From the NCBI RefSeq assembly GCF_034355335.1, contig NZ_CP136422.1, forward strand, positions 2,111,001 to 2,175,000: DNA of 64,000 nucleotides. Direction: 5' to 3'. Positions 23,972-64,000 of the stretch are shown piece by piece. Below the pieces are notes generated by a model, which ran no database searches, was not told where the DNA came from, and saw only the letters and a program-made list of their open reading frames with translations. Source of the DNA: Blautia coccoides. GTDB taxonomy: Bacteria; Bacillota; Clostridia; Lachnospirales; Lachnospiraceae. How positions within the stretch are numbered: position 1 is the first letter of the stretch; the number at the start of each line of letters is the position of its first letter. Made by a program: the position numbers and the translations under genes.

Positions 23972-24310
23972 AAGTTTTGTCTGCATTTTCAGCCGGGTCG
24001 ATCATTACGATACCAGATACTTTTTTTAGGTGTTTTCAGTATCTGGGGGTTTTTCAAAAAGATTGCGCATTTAGACTCTCTGTGTTAAAATTAGAAGAAA
24101 TAAGTAAAAAAAATATAATATTCTGATCAATTTATAAAATATTGCAAAAAAGTAAGAAGTTTGAGAACCAAGTAGTTGAAGAATCAAACTATTTCTGTAG
24201 AGCGGTGCGGCTGTTCCTTGGCACATAACGCGCAGGGCCGGCCCTTTTTTATACCTAGACCGGCATTACGGAAAGAGTTTTATGAATATATATGTAAGGG
24301 AGGGCAAGTC
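23972..24310. other. noncoding region before hybrid kinase
   Basis: About 340 bases without a convincing gene, AT-rich in its middle part. The kinase frame is open from 24176, but the first 45 codons lack a ribosome binding site and look noncoding. No clear promoter stands out. Confidence 0.4.
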
Positions 24311-52031: not shown

Positions 52032-52155
52032 TACAATTATATAATAAGATTTTGAATTATCAGCATAAATACTGCATTTATAAACAGTTTCATAACTGAA
52101 AAACACTCATTTTACCACGAATTTACCACGATTGAATGAGCCTTGATATGATGAT

Positions 52156-52204
52156 AAAACCGTAGCTGTAAATCACATACTGTGAATTACAATCTACGGT
52201 TTTT
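52156..52204. terminator. long bidirectional terminator hairpin
   Basis: AAAACCGTAG + TGTAAATCACA / TGTGAATTACA + CTACGGTTTT, an almost unbroken stem around a TAC loop with T runs on both sides, between the HAD gene and the opposing regulator. Confidence 0.85.
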
Positions 52205-52687: not shown

Positions 52688-54079
52688 CTAAACAACTGCA
52701 TACTGTTTCCATTTGTTACTTTTCCAACGCCAATAGAAACAAATACATCTGAATGTCCAATCCATAAGCATGGCTATCCATACGCTAAGAACACCAATAC
52801 CTAAACCATATGCTAATATATAGCTGAAACCAATACGAAATACAACCATTGAAATAGCAGAGATAAACATAGGATATTTGACATCCCCTGCTGCTCTAAA
52901 TGTATTAGGCAATGTAAATGACATAGGCCATACAGTTATCCAACCAGCAATGTGCATAATCATAACTATTAGTGAAAGGGAAAAGGTTTCTTCTGATAGA
53001 TTATAAAGGCTTAGTATTGGCTTCAATAATATAAATATTCCAAAATTGAATAAAAACATATATAGCCATGAAGATTTAAGCAAATGTTTAGAATATTTGA
53101 CAGCTTGCTCAAATTCTTTAGCACCGACACATTGTGCAACAACTGTAGTCATAGCCAGACCCAATGCCTGTCCTGGTATCGTTGCGACATTAAGTAAACT
53201 ACCAGTTACTGCATTAGCTGTAATTGCACTTGTACCAAACATAGCGATAAGACTTGTTAATATAATTCTTCCAATTTGAAAGACACTATTTTCAAGACTG
53301 GCAGGAATACTAATTTTAAAAATACTTTTAATCATTTTTAAATCTATATCCCAAAATTTGTATGAACGTATTGTAATAGACAAGTTTTGATTACGTAACA
53401 TTATCATAATTGTTATAGTTGCAATAACCCTTGAAAGTAAAGTAGATAAACCAACACCAAATGCACCAAGATGTATCATATATATAAATAACGCATTACC
53501 TACTATGTTAATGATATTCATAACAAATGAATTTACCATTGCATTTTTTGTATTACCCATCGCTCTAAATAAAGCTGAAGCAGAACTATAAACAGCAACG
53601 AAAGGAAATGAAATGGCAGTTATATAAAAATATGTTCTTGCATTGCTCATTACAGTAGCGTCTATATTTCCGAAAAACAGAGATAAAAGTTGTTGATTGA
53701 AAATTAAGCAAATAACCGAAAAAATTACAGATATGCCTAAACTGGAAATTATAAGCTGTTCACCAGCTTGATTACTTTTTTCTAAATTCTTACTACCCAA
53801 ATACTGACCAGCTACTATTGCTCCACCAGTAGCAAGGGCTGTTAGTAGGAAGATGAGTAAGGTGTTAATACTATCGACCAGTGATACACCAGATACTGCA
53901 CTTTCCCCAGCGTATGATACCATAAGAGTATCAAACATTCCTACTGACAGCATTAAAGCCTGCTCAATTATTAAGGGTATGATTATTCTTCTTAAAGATT
54001 TTTTAGAAAACATACCATACTCAAATACATTTGCTCCATGTGACATTGCTAATACACTCCTACTATTATATAAAGTCAT
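52688..54079 (-). CDS. MATE-family efflux transporter
   Basis: 463 residues, about 12 membrane segments, MATE pattern (RRIIIPLIIEQALMLSVGMFDTLMV; GGAIVAGQYLGSK; IPASLENSVFQIGRIILTS). Clearly AT-rich compared with the MATE gene at 8.7 kb, suggesting transfer. It was probably divergent from the HxlR regulator at 55.8 kb before an IS110 element inserted between them. Confidence 0.9.
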   Translation of the reverse strand: MTLYNSRSVLAMSHGANVFEYGMFSKKSLRRIIIPLIIEQALMLSVGMFDTLMVSYAGESAVSGVSLVDSINTLLIFLLTALATGGAIVAGQYLGSKNLEKSNQAGEQLIISSLGISVIFSVICLIFNQQLLSLFFGNIDATVMSNARTYFYITAISFPFVAVYSSASALFRAMGNTKNAMVNSFVMNIINIVGNALFIYMIHLGAFGVGLSTLLSRVIATITIMIMLRNQNLSITIRSYKFWDIDLKMIKSIFKISIPASLENSVFQIGRIILTSLIAMFGTSAITANAVTGSLLNVATIPGQALGLAMTTVVAQCVGAKEFEQAVKYSKHLLKSSWLYMFLFNFGIFILLKPILSLYNLSEETFSLSLIVMIMHIAGWITVWPMSFTLPNTFRAAGDVKYPMFISAISMVVFRIGFSYILAYGLGIGVLSVWIAMLMDWTFRCICFYWRWKSNKWKQYAVV

Positions 54080-54308: not shown

Positions 54309-55484
54309 ATGATTTACGTAGGAATTGATGTCGCAAAAGATAAGCATGATTGCTTTATCACAAACTCTGATGGCGAAGTCCTTTTCAAGGCTTTTACCAT
54401 CAAAAACAATCTCGATGGGTTCGACGAGCTTTATCAGAAAATAGAATCCGTTATGGAAGATGCTTCTAAAGTAAAAGTAGGCCTAGAAGCCACTGGACAC
54501 TATAGTTACAATCTTCTCGGATATCTGCTTGATAAAGGTCTGGCCACCTTTGTTATCAACCCGTTACATACTAATCTGTACAGAAAAAGTCTAAGCCTTA
54601 GACAGACGAAAACGGATAAAGTTGATGCCCATACAATTGCTTCTATGCTAATGTCTGACGTGAACTTAAAGTCCTACTCAGACACATCGTATCACAACGA
54701 AGAGCTTAAGTCACTTACTCGCTATCGTTTTGATAAAGTTAAAGAACGCGCGAAGCTTAAAACATCTATATCCCGTCTTGTATGTATCCTTTTCCCTGAG
54801 TTAGAAAAGCTTGTTCCAACACTTCATCAGAATTCTGTTTATGAGTTACTCTACGAATTTCCTGGTGCAAAACAGGTAGCTAATGCACATCTCACAAGAC
54901 TTTCAAATCTTCTTGAAACCGCATCTAAAGGCCACTACACAAAAGAAACCTCTATCGCTTTTAGAGAGGCTGCAAGAACCTCTATCGGTTCAAATATGCC
55001 AGCTAAATCGCTTGAATTAAAGCACACCATTAAGCTCATTAGAGAGCTAGATTCTGAAATCGAAGAGATTGAAAACGAGATTAAAGTCATCATGGATGAA
55101 ATCAATTCTCCAATCCTTAGCATTCCTGGAATCAGCTATCGAATGGGTGCCATGATTATTGCTGAAATAGGTGACTTTAGCCAATTCGACTCTCCAGATA
55201 AGATCCTTGCTTATGCAGGAATGTCGCCTTCTACCTATCAATCCGGCCAGTTAGATAACTGTTATGCCAGAATGGAAAAACGTGGTTCTAGATACCTTAG
55301 ATATGCTCTGTTTAATGCAACCGCATATGTTTGTCTATGGGATCCAACCTACAAGGCTTATCTTGCCAAGAAACGAGCTGAAGGCAAGCATTACTATGTT
55401 GCAATGTCTCACGCGACCAAGAAACTAGTTCGGCTAATTTATCATCTCGAACGCACTGGACAGCAATACCAAAAAGCAATCTAA
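54309..55484 (+). mobile_element. IS110-family transposase (element 2)
   Basis: 391-residue DEDD recombinase, not closely alike to element 1. Asp in MIYVGIDVAKDKHD, Glu in VGLEATGHYSYN, acidic pair in TKTDKVDAHTIA, helix-hairpin LSIPGISYRMGAMIIAEIGD, and C-terminal SGQLDNCYARMEKRGSRYLR with the serine region. ATG 54309 follows AGGAGG. Intact length. Inserted between the MATE and HxlR genes. Confidence 0.93.
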
Positions 55485-55510
55485 TTCTTCCAACATCATA
55501 TCTTCTTGTC

Positions 55511-55532
55511 AGAGCATCATACTCGATGCTCT
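55511..55532 (+). terminator. short hairpin after transposase
   Basis: AGAGCATC / GATGCTCT, perfect 8 bp, followed by ATTTG. It could end the transposase transcript or mark the element's right side. The remaining stretch to 55761 is AT-rich without a gene. Confidence 0.45.
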
Positions 55533-55761
55533 ATTTGTCATGCAATTTTCAAGGTACTGATTGCGATGAATAAGTCATCGCCACTATACTCAAAACATCT
55601 CTGTTTTTGAAACTATTTATTGACTTTCTTTAATAGTTAGTCTTTTTTATGTTTTTTGTCTAGCTGTGCTTATGTTAGCATTGCACGTTAAAAATTAAAA
55701 GTACTGTTTTTTAATGATTATAGTATCTTTTTTACTATTAAGTATTAAAAAATATGGTATA

Positions 55762-56218: not shown

Positions 56219-56371
56219 TTATTTTATAATCATCCAGTTATCATTTTTATATAAGGTCAATTCATACTGTGAAATTTGTGTTGCCTTTGTCTGACTGTCA
56301 ATAATCTTCACGGACATGCTCGCTTTGACAGTCCCCCCCGTCTGTTGTAAACACTTCAACATACTATCCCT
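56219..56371 (-). pseudogene. possible C-terminal fragment of a conjugation protein (TcpC-like)
   Basis: Minus-strand frame of about 50 codons ending TAA at 56219: ...LQQTGGTVKASMSVKII, DSQTKATQISQYELTLY, KNDNWMIIK. The alternating-strand pattern and ending resemble the C terminus of Tn916 Orf13/TcpC-like transfer proteins. It has no start of its own (an in-frame stop lies just upstream), so it looks like debris of a conjugation module. The family assignment is from memory and uncertain. Confidence 0.4.
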
Positions 56372-57587: not shown

Positions 57588-58682
57588 AGTATCGCAACAC
57601 ACGAAAATTTATCCGTTAAGATTGATTACATCAGCATTGTATTTGAAACCGCAACCGCAGAAGATGTAATCACACACATTTTAGAGTTACCGACTGACAT
57701 TTTCAATGTCTATCCGGCAACCGTTAAATTCAAGACCTATCAGATACGCTGGGAGATTGGAGATATTTATGTATCGGGGGACGCAAGAAAGACAGAGGAC
57801 AACCCACAAGGGTTAGGCTGTTATCTTGTTATGACTGGCAGAGGTTGTGATGATATTTTCCGTATTCTCAACAGCAGAAACTATACCTTTGGGGATATGT
57901 TCAAACATTGTGAAAGAAGATACGGACTGGATAATTTCCACTTCACAAGACTTGATATTGCCATTGATGATAAGAACGAAAAGCCATTCTTTACCATAGA
58001 GCAGATAAAGAAGAAATGCGAAAAAGAGGAATTTATTTCCAATAGTGAGGGCTACCACTTTGATGAAAGCAAGTTTGACGATTTCGACACCGCAAAAACG
58101 GTTTATATCGGTGCTGGAAAATCGGGATTGTCCTACCGCTTTTATGACAAGGATAAGGAAGTCTGTTCAAAATATAATAAGACGCTTGATGAAGTCGGCA
58201 GTTGGAAACGGACAGAAATGCAACTGCGTGATGATAAGGCTCATGCCTTTGCCATGACATTCAAGGACAGACCGCTGGAACTTGGAGAATTGGCTTTCGG
58301 GCTATTGGCAAACAACCTACGCTTTGTCGTAGCGAACAGAAATGAAAGTAATAAGAGCAGGTGGAAAACGTGTCGGTTTTGGGAACGCTTTTTAGGGGCT
58401 GTGGAAGTCTTGAAACTGCAAGTACCCAAACCACATAATTCCCTTGAAGAAACACAGCAATGGCTCACAGAGGGTGGCGTGATTTCTGCTGTCAAAAGTT
58501 TCTATTTCTTGGAAGAACATGACGCATTAGGTGGACTGGAAAAAGTGGGAACTATGCTTGATAAGGCAAGATACAGCACTTCCCTTTCCAGTAAACTGAC
58601 CGCTCACTTACAGAGGATAAACCGCACCGACCTTATCCCCTATATCCAGTATGACACGAAACAAGGGAAAGGGGGTATCTGA
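57588..58682 (+). pseudogene. Rep_trans/MobT-type replication-relaxation protein, start lost by frameshift
   Basis: A 364-codon open frame (from SIATHENLSVKIDYISIVFE to DTKQGKGGI) matching Tn916 Orf20-like Rep_trans/MobT proteins: FHFTRLDIAIDDKN holds the catalytic-region acids, RFYDKDKEVCSKYNK a Tyr candidate. The well-placed ATG at 57584 (after AAAGGAGTA) is one base out of frame and its product stops after 11 codons; no ATG, GTG or TTG occurs in frame until 57831, which would give only 283 residues. Overlaps xis by one base. Confidence 0.75.
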
Positions 58683-58885
58683 TGAATAACAACGATATTC
58701 CCGTATGGGAAAAATACACCCTTACCATTGAAGAAGCGTCAAAGTATTTCCGTATCGGAGAAAACAAGTTAAGACGATTGGCAGAGGAAAACAAGGACGC
58801 TGGCTGGCTCATTATGAATGGCAACCGCATACAGATTAAACGCCGACAGTTTGAAAAGGTTATTGATAAATTGGACGCAATCTAA
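58682..58885 (+). CDS. xis: Tn916-type excisionase
   Basis: 67 residues, nearly the length and sequence pattern of Tn916 Xis: [52 protein letters not shown]. Winged-helix directionality factor for the integrase. ATG overlaps the rep stop (TGATG). Confidence 0.95.
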
Positions 58886-58963: not shown

Positions 58964-60169
58964 ATGAAAGAAAAAAGACGGGATAGCAAAGGACGTATCC
59001 TGCATACTGGAGAGAGCCAACGAACAGACGGAAAATACTTATATAAATATGTGGACGCATTTGGAAACACAAAATATGTGTATGCTTGGAGATTGACACC
59101 CACAGACCCGACACCAAAGGGAAAACGGGAAAAACCCTCACTTCGTGAACTGGAACAGCAGATAAGACGGGATATAGAGGACGGTATCGACAGCACAGGC
59201 AAGAAAATGACGCTTTGCCAACTCTACGCCAAACAGAACGCACAGAGGACAAATGTGAAGAAAAGCACACAGAAACAACGGGAACAGCTCATGCGGTTAT
59301 TAAAAGAGGACAAGTTAGGTGCTAGGAGTATTGACACAATCAAGCTCTCTGACGCTAAGGAATGGGCGTTACGCATGAAAGACAAAGGCTTTTCCTACAA
59401 TACCATTAACAACCATAAACGCTCGTTAAAAGCGTCATTCTATATCGCCATACAAGACGACTGTGTAAGGAAAAACCCTTTTGATTTCAAGTTGAGTGAA
59501 GTCTTAGAAAATGATACCAAAGAGAAAGTCGCATTGACAGAAGAACAGGAACAAGCACTACTGTCATTCATCAAGACGGACAACGTGTATCATAAGTATT
59601 ACGATGATGTACTGATACTGTTAAAGACAGGACTTCGTATCTCGGAACTGTGCGGACTGACAGTAGCCGATATTGATTTCAAGAATGAGGTTGTGATTAT
59701 CGACCACCAGTTACTAAAGAGCAAGGAACAGGGCTATTACATTGAAACGCCTAAGACAAAGAGCGGAACAAGGCAAGTGCCATTAAGCAAAGAAACGATA
59801 CAGGCATTTCAACGGGTTATGAAGAAACGCCCAAAGACAGACCCATTTGTGATAGACGGACGAAGCAATTTCCTATTTGTCAATCACAAAGGCAAGCCGA
59901 AAGTTGCCATTGATTACAATGCCTTATTTGTCCGCATGGTAAAGAAATACAACAAGCACCACATGGATAACCCCTTGCCACATATCACACCGCATGCGTT
60001 GAGACATACGTTCTGCAGTCGATGCTTTGAAAAAGGAATTACCCCAAAGGTTGTTCAGCAGCTCATGGGACATGCTCATTATTCCACAACAATTGATATA
60101 TAAACACATATATCAGAAGAGATGATGGGAAATGAATTGGAGAAATTCAAAGTAGCAATGAATGCCTGA
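58964..60169 (+). pseudogene. int: Tn916-type tyrosine integrase, stop codon at catalytic Tyr
   Basis: Tn916-family integrase: N-terminal arm-binding domain (GRILHTGESQRTDGKYLYKY), core-binding LCQLYAKQNAQR, catalytic Arg in TGLRISELCGL, HxxR in HALRHTF, and GHAHYSTTIDI. TAA at 60101-60103 (codon 380) stands where the family has the nucleophilic Tyr of (I/L)YTH; the frame then continues THISEEMMGNELEKFKVAMNA to TGA at 60167-60169. One base change (TAT or TAC to TAA) explains it. The 379-residue product cannot cleave DNA. Confidence 0.85.
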
Positions 60170-60322: not shown

Positions 60323-60503
60323 AATGAAATGAAGCAAAGCTGCTAGTGGAAAACACGAAAATAGTCAGTAAGTAAGCCAATTTTGAGGGTTGAGTCCAAG
60401 AGGCTCAGGTTCAAGAAGTTGCAAAACAGATGGGCATGTAAGCGAAGCTTGCACTTCAAATTAAATAAGATTTTTTAAAGGCTCTGAAAGCCTTATAAAC
60501 ACT
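60323..60503. other. noncoding stretch right of the element
   Basis: No gene seen. Near 60479-60498 AAGGCT/AGCCTT makes a small hairpin. This is possibly the chromosome junction. Confidence 0.35.
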
Positions 60504-60904
60504 TTATTCTCTGGTGATTATAAGTTTTTCGGAGCTTTTTTCTATGGAAAAAGGGAAATATAGGCAGTCTGTACCACCTGCATCCTGCAATTTTTTTCGT
60601 AGATTACTGATGTGCTTCTTAAGCGAACGTTCTGTGCAGTCTTGTGTATCCAGGCTTAAGTGACCGATCGACAATGACTGTCTCTCTGTCTGTATTTCAT
60701 TTCCGAAGCTGAACAGTAATCCGTGCAAGAAGTTCTTTTATTTCAAACGGTTTGGTCATATAGTCAGCAGCATCACCGAGCAAAAGATTCAACATCAATC
60801 TTGGCACTGAGGACAATTACAGGAACATTCTGAATCTAGGGCAGAACTTCTGCCAGCATATCTCCAATCGAAATATCATCATCAATAATTTCTATGGTTT
60901 TCAT
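60504..60904 (-). pseudogene. decayed OmpR-type response regulator
   Basis: Minus-strand remnants: MKTIEIIDDDISIGDMLAEVLP at the start (ATG at 60904; receiver with the acidic triad), then VPVIVLSAKID, and at the end a winged-helix tail (CTERSLKKHISNLRKKLQDAGG to 60504). The frame is broken by several stops and shifts and is about half normal length. Not functional. Confidence 0.7.
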
Positions 60905-61039
60905 TTTTTCCTCATTTTCTCCAATTATGGATTGCGGTGTGATCATTGGAACACAGCTTGCCATCTGTCTCTTGTTGCGGGAAAAATTATTATCAGACAT
61001 ATAAACGCAGGATCAAGTTTCAGAGGTGGTGTTTAAAAA

Positions 61040-61061
61040 CTCCCCGATGAGTATCGGGGAG
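61040..61061 (-). terminator. terminator downstream of bioY
   Basis: CTCCCCGAT / ATCGGGGAG, perfect 9 bp with GAGT loop; on the minus strand followed by TTTTTAAAC. Confidence 0.8.
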
Positions 61062-61133
61062 AAATATTATTCGTATAGAGTTACCAGAAATTCAGAAGGA
61101 GAAAAAACCGATACACAGATGAATCGTCTTTAC

Positions 61134-61729
61134 TTAGAATAAGTTTGCATGAATCAACCGGTTACGAATCTGTGGTCCCAATATCATAGCAAGAACCATT
61201 TTGATTAAATCTCCCGGAATAAACGGGATGACACCTGCCATCAATGCGGCCAACAGATCCATGTGTGCTTCATATGCCAGACATGCAGTACCAAAGGCAT
61301 AGCATACAACATGATAAAGCAAAGCAATCTGTTATTAATCTTGCGGTTAATTACCATTCCTGCTATGATAGCCATTGGAATAAATCCAATAAGATAACCG
61401 CCTGTCGGTCCAAACAGTTTTCCAGGACCACTGGTAAATCCGGAAAATACAGGAACTCCCACCAGTCCGATCAGTAGATACACCAGATAGCTGATGGTCC
61501 CTCTTTTTACCCCCAACATATACAGTGCAAAATAAATAGCCAAGTTCGTCAGTGAAATCGGTACCGGCCCGATTGGCAGTGAAAAAGGTGCCAGCACACA
61601 GATTACTGCGGTCATTACTCCAATCGCAGCAATCTGCTGAATGGAAAATTTTTCTTTTGTATTAATTGTAAGATTACTCATTTTTTTAAGCCATCTTCCT
61701 GTGATAATCTCTTTCACAAGGTTTCTCAT
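61134..61729 (-). pseudogene. bioY: bioY biotin transporter, frameshifted
   Basis: S-component of a biotin ECF transporter in two frames. N-terminal part (from about 61729 with GGAGTAGGG, to about 61322): AVICVLAPFSLPIGPVPISLTNLA, GTISYLVYLLIGLVGVPVFSGFTSG, GPTGGYLIGF. C-terminal part (61322-61134): VVCYAFGTACLAYEAHMD and VIPFIPGDLIKMVLAMILG. The frames meet at a TTGCTTTGCTTT repeat near 61312-61325, a likely slippage site. Together they would make a normal-length BioY. Confidence 0.82.
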
Positions 61730-61772
61730 AATCCCTACTCCGAAGCTGTAATAAACCATCTAATGTAATTCG

Positions 61773-61801
61773 ATTTTATCATTGACTTGGAGAAATAGCA
61801 A
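61773..61801 (-). promoter_or_regulatory. promoter of bioY
   Basis: Minus strand TTGCTA - 17 bp - TAAAAT, about 40 bases before the start. I do not see a BirA-type palindrome. Confidence 0.55.
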
Positions 61802-61836
61802 GTTGATTGAGGAGTGACCAGGGTCACCCTGCCCCG

Positions 61837-62697
61837 CTATACATGCATCAGTTTTTTCCGAAACTGCGAAGGCGAACAGTGGTTATACATCTGAAAACTC
61901 CGATTAAAATTACTGACAGAAGAGAATCCCGAGGCTAGTGCAATATCAGTGATTGAGATTTTGGAATCGGTCAGCAGTTCTTCTGCGTGGCGGATACGCT
62001 GGCGTGTGAGGTATTCTTGGAAGGTTATTCCTGTAAATTCTTTAAAAAGTCTGGAAAAATGATATTTGCTGAATCCTGCGATTTCTGCAGCCTGTTCAAG
62101 TGTCAGATTTTCCCGAAATGAGGTATCGATATACTGACAGACCGTTGTGAATTTTTCCATGTATTCTCTTCGGGAGGAAAAGGATACATCGGTAAATCGA
62201 GGAGTATGTTCGAAATTATGGCGTACTAGCAGAAGAACAATCTGAATAACAGCAGAGGATACCCAGGCATCGGCCAGATAATTACTTTTTTCAGCCTCCC
62301 GGATGATTTCCTTGAATTTTGCAGACACTTCCTGAAAGAGTTCCGGACAGGAAGCCGGCGTAAGGCAAACAGCTTCCGGTAACAGAAGCAGTGCGCTTCC
62401 CATACCGGGTATAGAATAAAAAAGCGACAATGGTGCCTGAAAAATCAAGCGCTTACCGGTGGCAGGCGCCTGCAGTGAATGAATTTCCCCACTGTTGATA
62501 AATAACAGATCAAGGGGATTTAGTTTGTAGCACTCATTTCCTATTACGGCCTGATAGCCGTTTTCTAAAGGCATGATAATTTCAATACTTGTATGCCAGT
62601 GTGGCGGATAATCTTCAGTCTCCTGATTTTTCATCAATCGAAACTGTGAAGAATCATATGCAATCGTTTCTTTCATTCCTTTGAGATCTTCAATCAT
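61837..62697 (-). CDS. AraC-family regulator with cupin-like sensor domain
   Basis: 286 residues: N-terminal sugar-sensing cupin (PPHWHTSIEIIMPLENGY, SGEIHSLQAPATG) and C-terminal AraC HTH (LEQAAEIAGFSKYHFSRLF; ITDIALASGFSSVSNFNRSF). Divergent from the GH3 gene 120 bases away and likely its activator. Confidence 0.92.
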   Translation of the reverse strand: MIEDLKGMKETIAYDSSQFRLMKNQETEDYPPHWHTSIEIIMPLENGYQAVIGNECYKLNPLDLLFINSGEIHSLQAPATGKRLIFQAPLSLFYSIPGMGSALLLLPEAVCLTPASCPELFQEVSAKFKEIIREAEKSNYLADAWVSSAVIQIVLLLVRHNFEHTPRFTDVSFSSRREYMEKFTTVCQYIDTSFRENLTLEQAAEIAGFSKYHFSRLFKEFTGITFQEYLTRQRIRHAEELLTDSKISITDIALASGFSSVSNFNRSFQMYNHCSPSQFRKKLMHV

Positions 62698-62816
62698 AGT
62701 AAAAGATAATCCCTTTCAAAAATAGCAAAATATAGGAAAAGTATAGCAAGAATCAATAAGGAAAACAATAGATTCTTTTTTATAATATAGAAAATGAACA
62801 AAAAAGGAGATTACTT

Positions 62817-64000
62817 ATGGCTAAAACATTTAGAGAACGGGCGGAAGAACTTGTAGCACAGATGACGCTGGAGGAGAAGGTTTCCCAGACACTTCACGGA
62901 GCGGCAGAAATCGAGAGATTGGGAATTCCCAAATATAACTGGTGGAATGAGGCACTTCACGGAATTGCCAGAACGGGAACAGCGACATTATTTCCACAGG
63001 CAATAGGTCTGGCTGCATCTTTTGATGAAGAACTGGTTGCGGAGATGGCTGATATCATTGCCACTGAAGGACGTGCAAAATATAATATGCATGTGAAATA
63101 TGGTGACAGAGACATCTATAAAGGTTTAACATACTGGGCACCTAATGTAAATATTTTCCGTGATCCGCGCTGGGGAAGAGGTCATGAAACGTATGGTGAG
63201 GATCCCTATCTTACATCACGCCTGGGCGTGCGGTTTATTCAGGCACTTCAGGGAGATGATCCTGTATATATGAAGGCAGTAGCCTGTGCAAAGCATTTTG
63301 CTGTACATTCCGGACCGGAAGGAGAGAGACATCATTTTAATGCTGTTGCATCCAAACAGGATATGTATGAGACTTATCTGCCGGCATTTAAAGCCTGTGT
63401 GCAGGAAGGAAAAGTAGAAGCTGTGATGGGTGCATATAACAGGACAAATGGAGAACCATGCTGCGGCAGTAAGACACTTCTGCAAGATATTTTGAGAGAA
63501 GAATGGGGATTTGAGGGGCACGTTGTCAGTGACTGCTGGGCAGTGCGTGATTTCCATGAAAATCATCATGTAACAAATGCACCGGTGGAGTCCGTAACGA
63601 TGGCTATGAATCACGGTTGTGACTTGAATTGTGGTTGTACATACCCTCATCTGGTTCAGGCAGTACGTGAAGGAAGAGTTGATGAAAAACGAATCAATGA
63701 GGCGGTCATCAATCTTTTCACCACACGTATGAAGCTTGGTATGTTTGAAGAACCGGGAACAGTTCCATTCGATAGTATTCCTTATACAGAAAACGACACA
63801 CCGGAACATAACCGTATAAACGAAAAGATTTCTGAAAAAACTCTGGTTCTTCTGAAAAATGAAGGAGGACTTCTTCCTCTGAATAAGAATAATATGAAAA
63901 CCATCGGAGTCATCGGGCCAAATGCCAATAGCAGAGCAGCACTTGTGGGTAACTATGAGGGAACTGCTTCCCGCTATGTAACAGTTCTTGAAGGAATTCA
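62817..64000 (+). CDS. GH3 beta-glycosidase, 3' end outside window
   Basis: First 394 codons of a glycoside hydrolase family 3 enzyme, no signal peptide: MTLEEKVSQTLHGAAEIERL, NWWNEALHGIAR, CAKHFAVHSGPEGERH, MGAYNRTNGEPCCGS, nucleophile Asp in HVVSDCWAVRDF, then the second domain (TLVLLKNEGGLLPL). The pattern is close to xylosidase/arabinosidase-type GH3. AAAAAAGGAG precedes the ATG. The TATAAT at 62781-62786 lacks a good -35, fitting AraC activation. Confidence 0.93.
   Translation, partial: MAKTFRERAEELVAQMTLEEKVSQTLHGAAEIERLGIPKYNWWNEALHGIARTGTATLFPQAIGLAASFDEELVAEMADIIATEGRAKYNMHVKYGDRDIYKGLTYWAPNVNIFRDPRWGRGHETYGEDPYLTSRLGVRFIQALQGDDPVYMKAVACAKHFAVHSGPEGERHHFNAVASKQDMYETYLPAFKACVQEGKVEAVMGAYNRTNGEPCCGSKTLLQDILREEWGFEGHVVSDCWAVRDFHENHHVTNAPVESVTMAMNHGCDLNCGCTYPHLVQAVREGRVDEKRINEAVINLFTTRMKLGMFEEPGTVPFDSIPYTENDTPEHNRINEKISEKTLVLLKNEGGLLPLNKNNMKTIGVIGPNANSRAALVGNYEGTASRYVTVLEGI

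What the first reader, a model, noticed from the sequence alone, without database searches (positions are those of the whole stretch)
60101..60103. Stop codon exactly at the integrase catalytic tyrosine
The Tn916-type integrase is intact through GHAHYSTTIDI, then has TAA where the family has the nucleophilic Tyr of YTH; the same frame continues for 21 sense codons to a normal end. One substitution removes just the catalytic residue, leaving an arm- and core-binding protein that could still bind att sites. The element would be locked in place unless helped in trans, and the truncated protein could even act as a competitor of sister integrases.
Basis: partly seen in the sequence, partly recalled or inferred. 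Interest (0 to 1): 0.78.

Follow-up and report, generated by a model that had tools for sequence, protein, structure and literature searches.

The report
Integrase gene split, tail swapped, then stopped
The stop codon is real, but it lies in a borrowed tail: a 33.6-kb piece of DNA has landed exactly in the codon of a catalytic residue of a mobile element's integrase gene, at a spot that a group of serine-recombinase elements in gut bacteria seems to use repeatedly.

Summary
The TAA at 60101-60103 is real and sits where relatives have the catalytic Tyr. It is not one substitution in an otherwise intact Tn916-type integrase. Codons 1-344 (58964-59995) are Tn916/Tn1549-type, 95.9% identical to a sister copy. 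From 59996 the frame enters the tail of another integrase family. The ICE's own tail, with its Tyr, lies in the same genome, displaced by 33,569 bp, outside the window. A 33.6-kb segment thus entered the integrase gene exactly at the His codon (CAT) of the HxxR box. Its right end is a triplet of large serine recombinases. All 8 distinct right ends of this kind that I found (7 genomes, one viral contig) abut the same box of a tyrosine integrase; 19 protein clusters show the matching left end. This segment differs: its left end is the 3' part of another integrase (57 codons, identical to three metagenome hybrids but for the stop), then come blocks of about 22 kb that are 95-99% identical to another species' chromosome downstream of tsf. 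The host element is already a remnant. I think the serine recombinases captured donor DNA between two integrase boxes and inserted it here; the circle step is inferred. New variant of a known kind.

The parts
58964..59995 (+). 5' part of the ICE's own integrase gene (int_A codons 1-344): arm-binding domain PF02920, core-binding part, catalytic domain up to the His of HxxR
   Evidence: 95.9% aa over 344 residues to the sister integrase at G000:170743-171873; Pfam PF02920, PF00589; nearest solved sequences 6emy/6en0/6emz 'Int protein' and 1bb8/1b69 'integrase' (that these are Tn1549 and Tn916 Int is recalled)
59993..59995 (+). CAT, His codon of HxxR: 3-base core shared by both junctions (other copy at genome 2204562-2204564)
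59996..60100 (+). Borrowed tail T3' up to the stop (ALRHTFCSRCFEKGITPKVVQQLMGHAHYSTTIDI), left end of the inserted 33.6-kb segment
   Evidence: 35 of 35 residues identical to P0001, P0002, P0003; tail family PF14659 type
60101..60103 (+). TAA at the position of the catalytic Tyr
60104..60169 (+). Rest of the borrowed tail, 21 codons and TGA, beyond the stop
   Evidence: 21 of 21 residues identical to P0001-P0003
60182..60322 (.). Short repeats TACGAAAA / CTTCGTAAAATAAA, possibly arm-type sites of the integrase that the tail came from
   Evidence: function inferred
60413..60441 (+). Second copy of the 3' end of tsf (elongation factor Ts, named by me from its protein sequence), probably the old attachment core of the element that owned the tail
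   Evidence: matches the end of tsf in G405 contig C104 with one mismatch; own intact rpsB-tsf is at genome 2753154-2755153
60413..64000 (.). Start of donor-like DNA (BioY, AraC regulator and others), which runs on past the window end
   Evidence: blocks of 95.4-98.7% identity, in order, to G405 C104 up to genome 2194032 and 2196436-2196989; rpsB-tsf of the two genomes is 83% identical
58682..58885 (+). Excisionase gene of the ICE remnant (PF09035 Tn916-Xis)
57831..58682 (+). Rep_trans (PF02486) gene of the ICE remnant
56228..56365 (-). Fragment of TpcC (PF12642), remnant of the transfer region
   Evidence: 48 of 231 profile positions, below the curated cut-off

Best explanation
The integrase gene of a decayed Tn916-like ICE (int_A) was hit by a site-specific insertion. 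A 33,569-bp segment (window 59996 to genome 2204564) entered exactly at the CAT codon for the His of the catalytic HxxR box, by the action of large serine recombinases that stand as a tandem triplet at its right end. These belong to a group of elements (X) whose habitual target is this box in tyrosine-integrase genes. Ordinary X elements (two seen with both ends, about 90 and 98 kb apart) leave the interrupted integrase with the end GRVIIRTS. This segment instead begins with the last part of the catalytic domain of another integrase (T3'), so the frame of int_A continues into a complete foreign tail; in this copy that tail bears a stop at the catalytic Tyr. Most of the segment is donor-like chromosome from next to tsf. 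Shown: stop, hybrid frame, both junctions, the 3-base core, the displaced own tail, the recurrent target, the donor-like DNA. Inferred: that the recombinases exchanged the integrase box of a tsf-borne element with an X right end farther along in a donor of the G405 kind, released a circle joining Xright to T3', and put it into int_A; and that the stop came last.
For: Both halves of int_A are present, in the same orientation and without loss, and adjoin in the sister copy (codons 1-344 at 95.9% aa; 344 nt from the right junction at 96.5%). Junction bases. Triplet of PF00239/PF07508 proteins at the right end; nearest solved sequence TnpX. Right ends: five were first seen through the recombinase; a pattern drawn from them matched 7 of 397 family genomes (reversed-pattern control 0 in every row) and 2 viral contigs, one of them a copy of G145. 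All 8 distinct right ends abut a tyrosine-integrase tail at the HxxRH box, including the three not used to draw the pattern (G027, G368, the IMG/VR contig); two A-type tails are alike, the other six are 70-86% identical to each other and 50-58% to the A type. Left ends: G145 and G319 share one left end directly after the His codon, on the same contig and strand as their right ends; 19 protein clusters end H-GRVIIRTS, in 10 groups at 90% over the 60 residues before, or nine if P0202, which differs only farther upstream, is joined to P0200. Hybrids P0001-P0003 carry the window's tail on other integrases, whose families have other native tails. Donor-like DNA and tsf 3' end. G405 holds a 574-bp piece of the X right module directly after the donor-like DNA.
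Against: The circle and the donor event are not seen. T3' DNA over its full length was found in no other genome among 299 family and 391 class genomes, where only partial matches turned up, and two tail patterns had no exact match in viral contigs. The contigs of P0001-P0003 could not be read, so that they too carry Xright or the donor DNA is a guess. G405 lacks T3' and a close relative of the recombinase. The left end here is not the usual X left end, so the exchange must have used an unusual pair of sites. In G319 the codon at the junction reads Tyr, not His. The pattern and the left-end peptide were taken from known cases, so these searches show recurrence, not frequency.
Confidence: 0.8

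Rival explanations
1. Single nonsense substitution at the catalytic Tyr of the ICE's own integrase: a locked element with an arm- and core-binding remnant.
For: The TAA is at the right codon and the downstream frame is conserved.
Against: 48 of 48 relatives that could be judged have a different tail; the ICE's own tail lies beyond a 33.6-kb insertion.
Confidence: 0.05
2. The hybrid arose by homologous recombination or gene conversion between two integrase genes at their conserved box, followed by a chance rearrangement.
For: The two integrase types share CATACGTTCTGCA shortly after the switch, and chimeric integrases by homologous recombination have been proposed for archaeal suicidal integrases (PMC8371274, passages).
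Against: The right junction joins the recombinase-bearing end to the same codon without loss of int_A, and the same end abuts the same box in 8 of 8 cases.
Confidence: 0.1
3. Assembly artefact: two integrase loci wrongly joined.
For: Integrase genes are repeated in this genome (19 matches), and no reads could be examined.
Against: One 6.1-Mb contig; the right junction with the same integrase type recurs in an IMG/VR contig, and the hybrid tail recurs in P0001-P0003.
Confidence: 0.05
4. T3' is the fixed left end of a stable mobile unit that rescues the integrases it enters by supplying a new catalytic tail. (An extension of the best explanation, not exclusive of it.)
For: Three hybrids without a stop, with identical tails, on different integrases; catalytic columns kept in them.
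Against: Contexts unseen; in this copy the tail is dead; the model of P0002 has pLDDT under 50 over most of residues 381-402, so it does not help.
Confidence: 0.25

Closest known systems
Streptococcal ICEs with triplets of serine integrases (PMC4701971: section 23 read whole, and passages)
   Same: Three tandem serine integrases, same orientation, at one end; insertion disrupts a gene and leaves 2-8 bp direct repeats; one target, traG, lies in another ICE.
   Different: Targets named in that section are mutT, traG, hsdM and a few secondary sites; here the target is the catalytic box of tyrosine integrases, and this copy carries a foreign integrase tail and donor chromosome.
TnpX-type large serine recombinases of Tn4451 (PMC5704250 passages; PMC10083194 section 6)
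   Same: Recombinase family, very short core, excision and integration without a directionality factor as the passage says for Tn4451.
   Different: Tn4451 is said to insert with low specificity; here one codon box recurs.
IME_Rho_tet of gut bacteria (PMC12904643, passages)
   Same: Serine-recombinase element that enters genes of other mobile elements in related hosts.
   Different: Its main target is MAFF2 (116 of 256 sites); its other targets (a figure) I did not see.
Archaeal suicidal integrases (PMC8371274, passages)
   Same: Integration splits an integrase gene; chimeric integrases can follow.
   Different: There the element splits its own integrase by its own attachment site; here another element splits it.
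Tn916/Tn1549-type integrase
   Same: Domains and sequence of codons 1-344.
   Different: Lacks its own catalytic tail in place.

Membership tests
Tn916-like ICE (host element) | Integrase with PF02920 and PF00589, and Tn916-type Xis next to it | tested here: met
Tn916-like ICE (host element) | Whole integrase gene with its own catalytic tail | tested here: not met
   split by 33,569 bp
Tn916-like ICE (host element) | Transfer genes present | tested here: not met
   only a TpcC fragment, 48 of 231 positions; full copies at 2284453, 3397855, 4252946, 4906291. Other transfer genes were not searched
Triplet serine-integrase element | Three tandem large serine recombinases at one end | tested here: met
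   ORFs of the same three lengths in G319
Triplet serine-integrase element | Gene disruption with a 2-8 bp repeat | tested here: met
   CAT at both junctions
Triplet serine-integrase element | Own conjugation module | tested here: inconclusive
   no TpcC in the 33.6 kb, other conjugation genes not searched; left end of the G145 element has ParA, ParB, RepA_N; most of the large elements was not read
X elements as defined here | Left end GGTCGAGTTATAATAAGG after the His codon | tested here: not met
   present in G145 and G319; not found in the own stretches held, where T3' follows the codon
X elements as defined here | Right end abutting the HxxRH box of a tyrosine integrase | tested here: met
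   8 of 8 distinct right ends
Suicidal integrase | Attachment site of the element inside its own integrase gene | tested here: not met
   48 of 48 relatives of int_A have one type of tail

The most novel reading that the evidence does not exclude
A group of gut serine-recombinase elements uses the catalytic box of tyrosine integrases as a universal docking site in other mobile elements. By exchanging between two such boxes it can excise and move the DNA between them, chromosome included, across species, and at the same time makes new hybrid integrases by tail exchange. Some of these hybrids (P0001-P0003) may be active, so the parasite would both disarm and re-tool its hosts.
Probability: 0.3. 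Interest if true: 0.88.

Novelty: new variant of a known kind. Interest (0 to 1): 0.7.

Why it matters
A codon that active tyrosine integrases of this kind keep is a target that can hardly be lost without loss of function, so an element that docks there would find a site in many ICEs and prophages. If the tail exchange gives active enzymes, it is a route to new integrases; if not, it is a way by which one mobile element silences another. The 33.6-kb case also suggests how such recombinases can carry chromosomal genes (here carbohydrate-use genes) between species.

Tried and rejected
Rejected: a simple point mutation in the ICE's own gene; my own first reading that the whole 33.6 kb was cargo of an X element, which failed when G405 showed most of it to be donor-like chromosome behind tsf; a tRNA as attachment site inside the window (none found); flanking direct repeats inside 50-64 kb (only short, chance-like families among the 20 of at least 60 shown). 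Led nowhere: tail patterns in viral contigs; tail DNA in phage records (no match) and plasmid records (12 records, matching only the first 68 bases, which are int_A); tail DNA in 299 and 391 genomes (only partial matches outside the own genome); recombinase against plasmids (261 records, all below 60% identity); the model of the hybrid P0002, whose tail is of low confidence. Papers: the ten searches (the last two without any hit) listed none whose title or shown start of abstract describes serine-recombinase elements in the catalytic box of tyrosine integrases. I looked at passages of PMC3158075, PMC4701971, PMC5357655, PMC5704250, PMC6222049, PMC6814731, PMC8371274, PMC10083194, PMC12904643 and PMC13023037 and found none there either. 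Most subscription papers are not held, supplements were not open to me, so this is no proof of absence.

Full report
Observation. The ORF 58964-60103 encodes 379 aa and ends with TAA at 60101-60103; the frame then has 21 sense codons and TGA at 60167-60169. The N-terminal part carries PF02920 and the rest PF00589; a Tn916-type Xis and a Rep_trans gene lie upstream. In an alignment of 21 integrases the column of codon 380 is an invariant Tyr (Y381 of P0002), together with H345, R348 and H349 of the HxxRH box.

The tail is foreign. A scan of the species genomes gave 56 loci with relatives of the protein. Of the DNA alignments that come near the end of the gene, most break off at 60017 and the rest at 60073 or earlier. 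Of 64 loci then in hand, one is the window itself and 15 did not reach the junction; all 48 others have the tail HxLRHTFCT...MGHSNISITM(N/D)WYAH. The window switches at 59996, right after the CAT codon for the first His of PHxLRH, to ALRHTFCSRCFEKGITPKVVQQLMGHAHYSTTIDI-stop. Proteins with a similar tail mostly carry PF14659 instead of PF02920 (120 of 156 hits listed). Three metagenome proteins carry the same tail without the stop: P0001 and P0002 on integrases akin to each other (PF02920 in P0002), P0003 on a third kind. The 35 residues before and the 21 after the stop are identical in all three. Native tails of those families differ: in 28 of 34 viral-contig relatives of P0002 a native box tail could be read, the other six being cut short, hybrid or unread; 35 of 70 relatives of the P0003 core end in the way HTTYEYYCE(I/V)MDEQ and none of those printed shares the tail.

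The ICE's own tail is displaced. The genome is one contig of 6,097,890 bp, the window being 2111001-2175000. From genome 2204565 onward lies the missing A-type tail with its Tyr. Against the sister integrase at 170743-171873, codons 1-344 match at 95.9% and the 344 bases from the right junction match at 96.5%, and the two matches adjoin there, with a 6-base overlap. The junctions share CAT: left CCGCAT-GCGTTGAG, right TCCTCAT-ACGCTACG, intact sister CCACAT-ACGCTACG. The inserted length, window 59996 (genome 2170996) to genome 2204564, is 33,569 bp.

The right end is a serine-recombinase triplet. Genes for 563, 566 and 525 aa in a row end 124 bases before the CAT; each product has a Resolvase and a Recombinase domain, and the nearest solved sequence to the last one is TnpX. 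A sigma-70 region 4 protein and a PemK/MazF-like protein precede them.

The target recurs. The 525-aa protein has matches in 16 of 397 family genomes at E 1e-100 or better. Seven, the own genome included, are at 68% identity or more: in five the right end is directly followed by the 3' part of a tyrosine integrase from the HxxRH box, G027 likewise, and G394 shows no such right end, its match being cut soon after the gene. The other nine, at 38-43%, mostly end elsewhere (see noticed in passing). A pattern drawn from the right ends matched 7 of 397 genomes with no match of the reversed control and two viral contigs, one of which is G145 again. All 8 distinct right ends abut the box; in G319 the His codon reads Tyr and the tail has an in-frame stop. 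Three of the 8 were not used to draw the pattern. The two A-type tails, own and IMG/VR, are alike and could descend from one event; the other six are 70-86% identical to each other and 50-58% to the A type over 50 residues, so I count at least seven separate insertions.

Left ends. In G145 (contig C4, 435,699 bp, with the length and coordinates of Dorea phocaeensis NZ_OEPZ01000003.1) the integrase 5' part stops at ...ITPH at 113801 on the minus strand, and the right end is at 24106 on the same strand: about 90 kb. In G319 the pair is 1636030 and 1537709: about 98 kb. What lies between was read only in part. Both have the same left end, GGTCGAGTTATAATAAGGACAAG, which makes the integrase end GRVIIRTS. 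Nineteen protein clusters end that way, in 10 groups at 90% over the 60 residues before the junction, nine if P0202 is joined to P0200; the search listed 120 of 439 hits, and its query held this peptide. Genes behind the left end in G145 include ParA, ParB and two RepA_N proteins. The two ends joined would give TTGACA, 17 bases, TATAAT; a promoter made at the circle joint is reported for Tn4451 (Lyras and Rood 2000; title seen in the reference list of PMC13023037). That it works here is not tested.

This segment is different. It has no such left end but T3', then repeats of TACGAAAA type, then a second copy of the last 29 bases of tsf, with one mismatch, at 60413. From there five blocks of 95.4-98.7% identity, 22.3 kb together and spread over 25.6 kb (genome 2171413-2196989), run in order along contig C104 of G405, a genome of the same genus, where rpsB and tsf precede them. 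The own rpsB-tsf is elsewhere and only 83% identical to that of G405. So this DNA, with BioY, an AraC regulator, a solute-binding protein and GH3, GH8 and GH43 enzymes, most likely came from a related species. Homology with the G145 and G319 right modules begins at genome 2197463. G405 keeps a 574-bp piece of that module directly behind the donor-like DNA, so the joint of both existed in the donor line; G405 itself has no close relative of the recombinase and no T3'.

Mechanism. The simplest account is that an element with the integrase of the tail stood at the 3' end of tsf in a donor, with an X right end about 33 kb along. The recombinases exchanged the box of that integrase with the X right end, which releases a circle with joint Xright-CAT-T3', and this entered the box of int_A. 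Shown are the endpoints; the circle and its transfer are inferred. The pairing of sites is unusual, since T3' is a target-type half site and not the usual left end. Tn4451 is said to integrate and excise without a directionality factor (PMC5704250, passages). The stop is the only residue that differs from the three other copies, so it is probably the latest event, or a sequencing error.

Function of the 379-aa product. It has both DNA-binding parts and lacks the nucleophile. It may bind the ends; nothing here tests this. The element had already lost at least TpcC of its transfer region: only a fragment remains at 56228-56365. An intact sister copy of the integrase exists in the genome.

Known and new. 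Triplets of serine integrases in streptococcal ICEs disrupt mutT, traG or hsdM with 2-8 bp repeats (PMC4701971, section 23 read whole). A large survey of serine recombinases names other targets in the section I read (PMC10083194, section 6). IME_Rho_tet of gut bacteria enters mainly MAFF2 genes (PMC12904643, passages). Splitting of integrase genes by their own element is known in archaea (PMC8371274, passages). I found no paper in ten searches (named in Tried and rejected) on serine-recombinase elements whose site is the HxxR codon of tyrosine integrases. Hence: new variant of a known kind.

Limits. The structure model of P0002 has mean pLDDT 82 but under 50 over most of residues 381-402, so it says nothing on the hybrid tail.

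Noticed in passing
L123 (IMG/VR 3300006213_001373) and protein P0138: Another left end at the same box, after HxxRH: RH-PYVK..., which suggests a second element type that uses this box.
   Followed up: partly
L090 and L086: More distant relatives of the serine recombinase (39% and 43%) end directly before tyrosine-integrase Box I (KAELLAL...), next to the catalytic Arg codon; by eye L089 and L093 end before an HTH gene and an aldo/keto reductase gene.
   Followed up: partly
L141 / G319:1537543-1537740: The displaced integrase tail there has an in-frame stop, so tails may decay after being cut off.
   Followed up: no
window 54392-55650: IS110-type transposase region with a copy identical over 1259 bp in L073 (genome 4915473-4916731), close behind another Tn916-type integrase gene at 4914123-4915238.
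   Followed up: no
genome 2206709-2208000 (L069): A stretch of about 1.3 kb, to the end of what I searched, nearly identical at five other places of the genome, probably part of a repeated mobile element.
   Followed up: no
window 52049-52159: About 110 bases shared at 77-83% with DNA upstream of many relatives' integrase modules, farther away from the integrase here; a MATE-family transporter gene (52688-54079, minus) and other genes lie between.
   Followed up: no
L128 9306-15160: Left end of the Dorea element: ParA, ParB, two RepA_N proteins and an IstB-like ATPase behind a possible circle-joint promoter half (TATAAT).
   Followed up: partly
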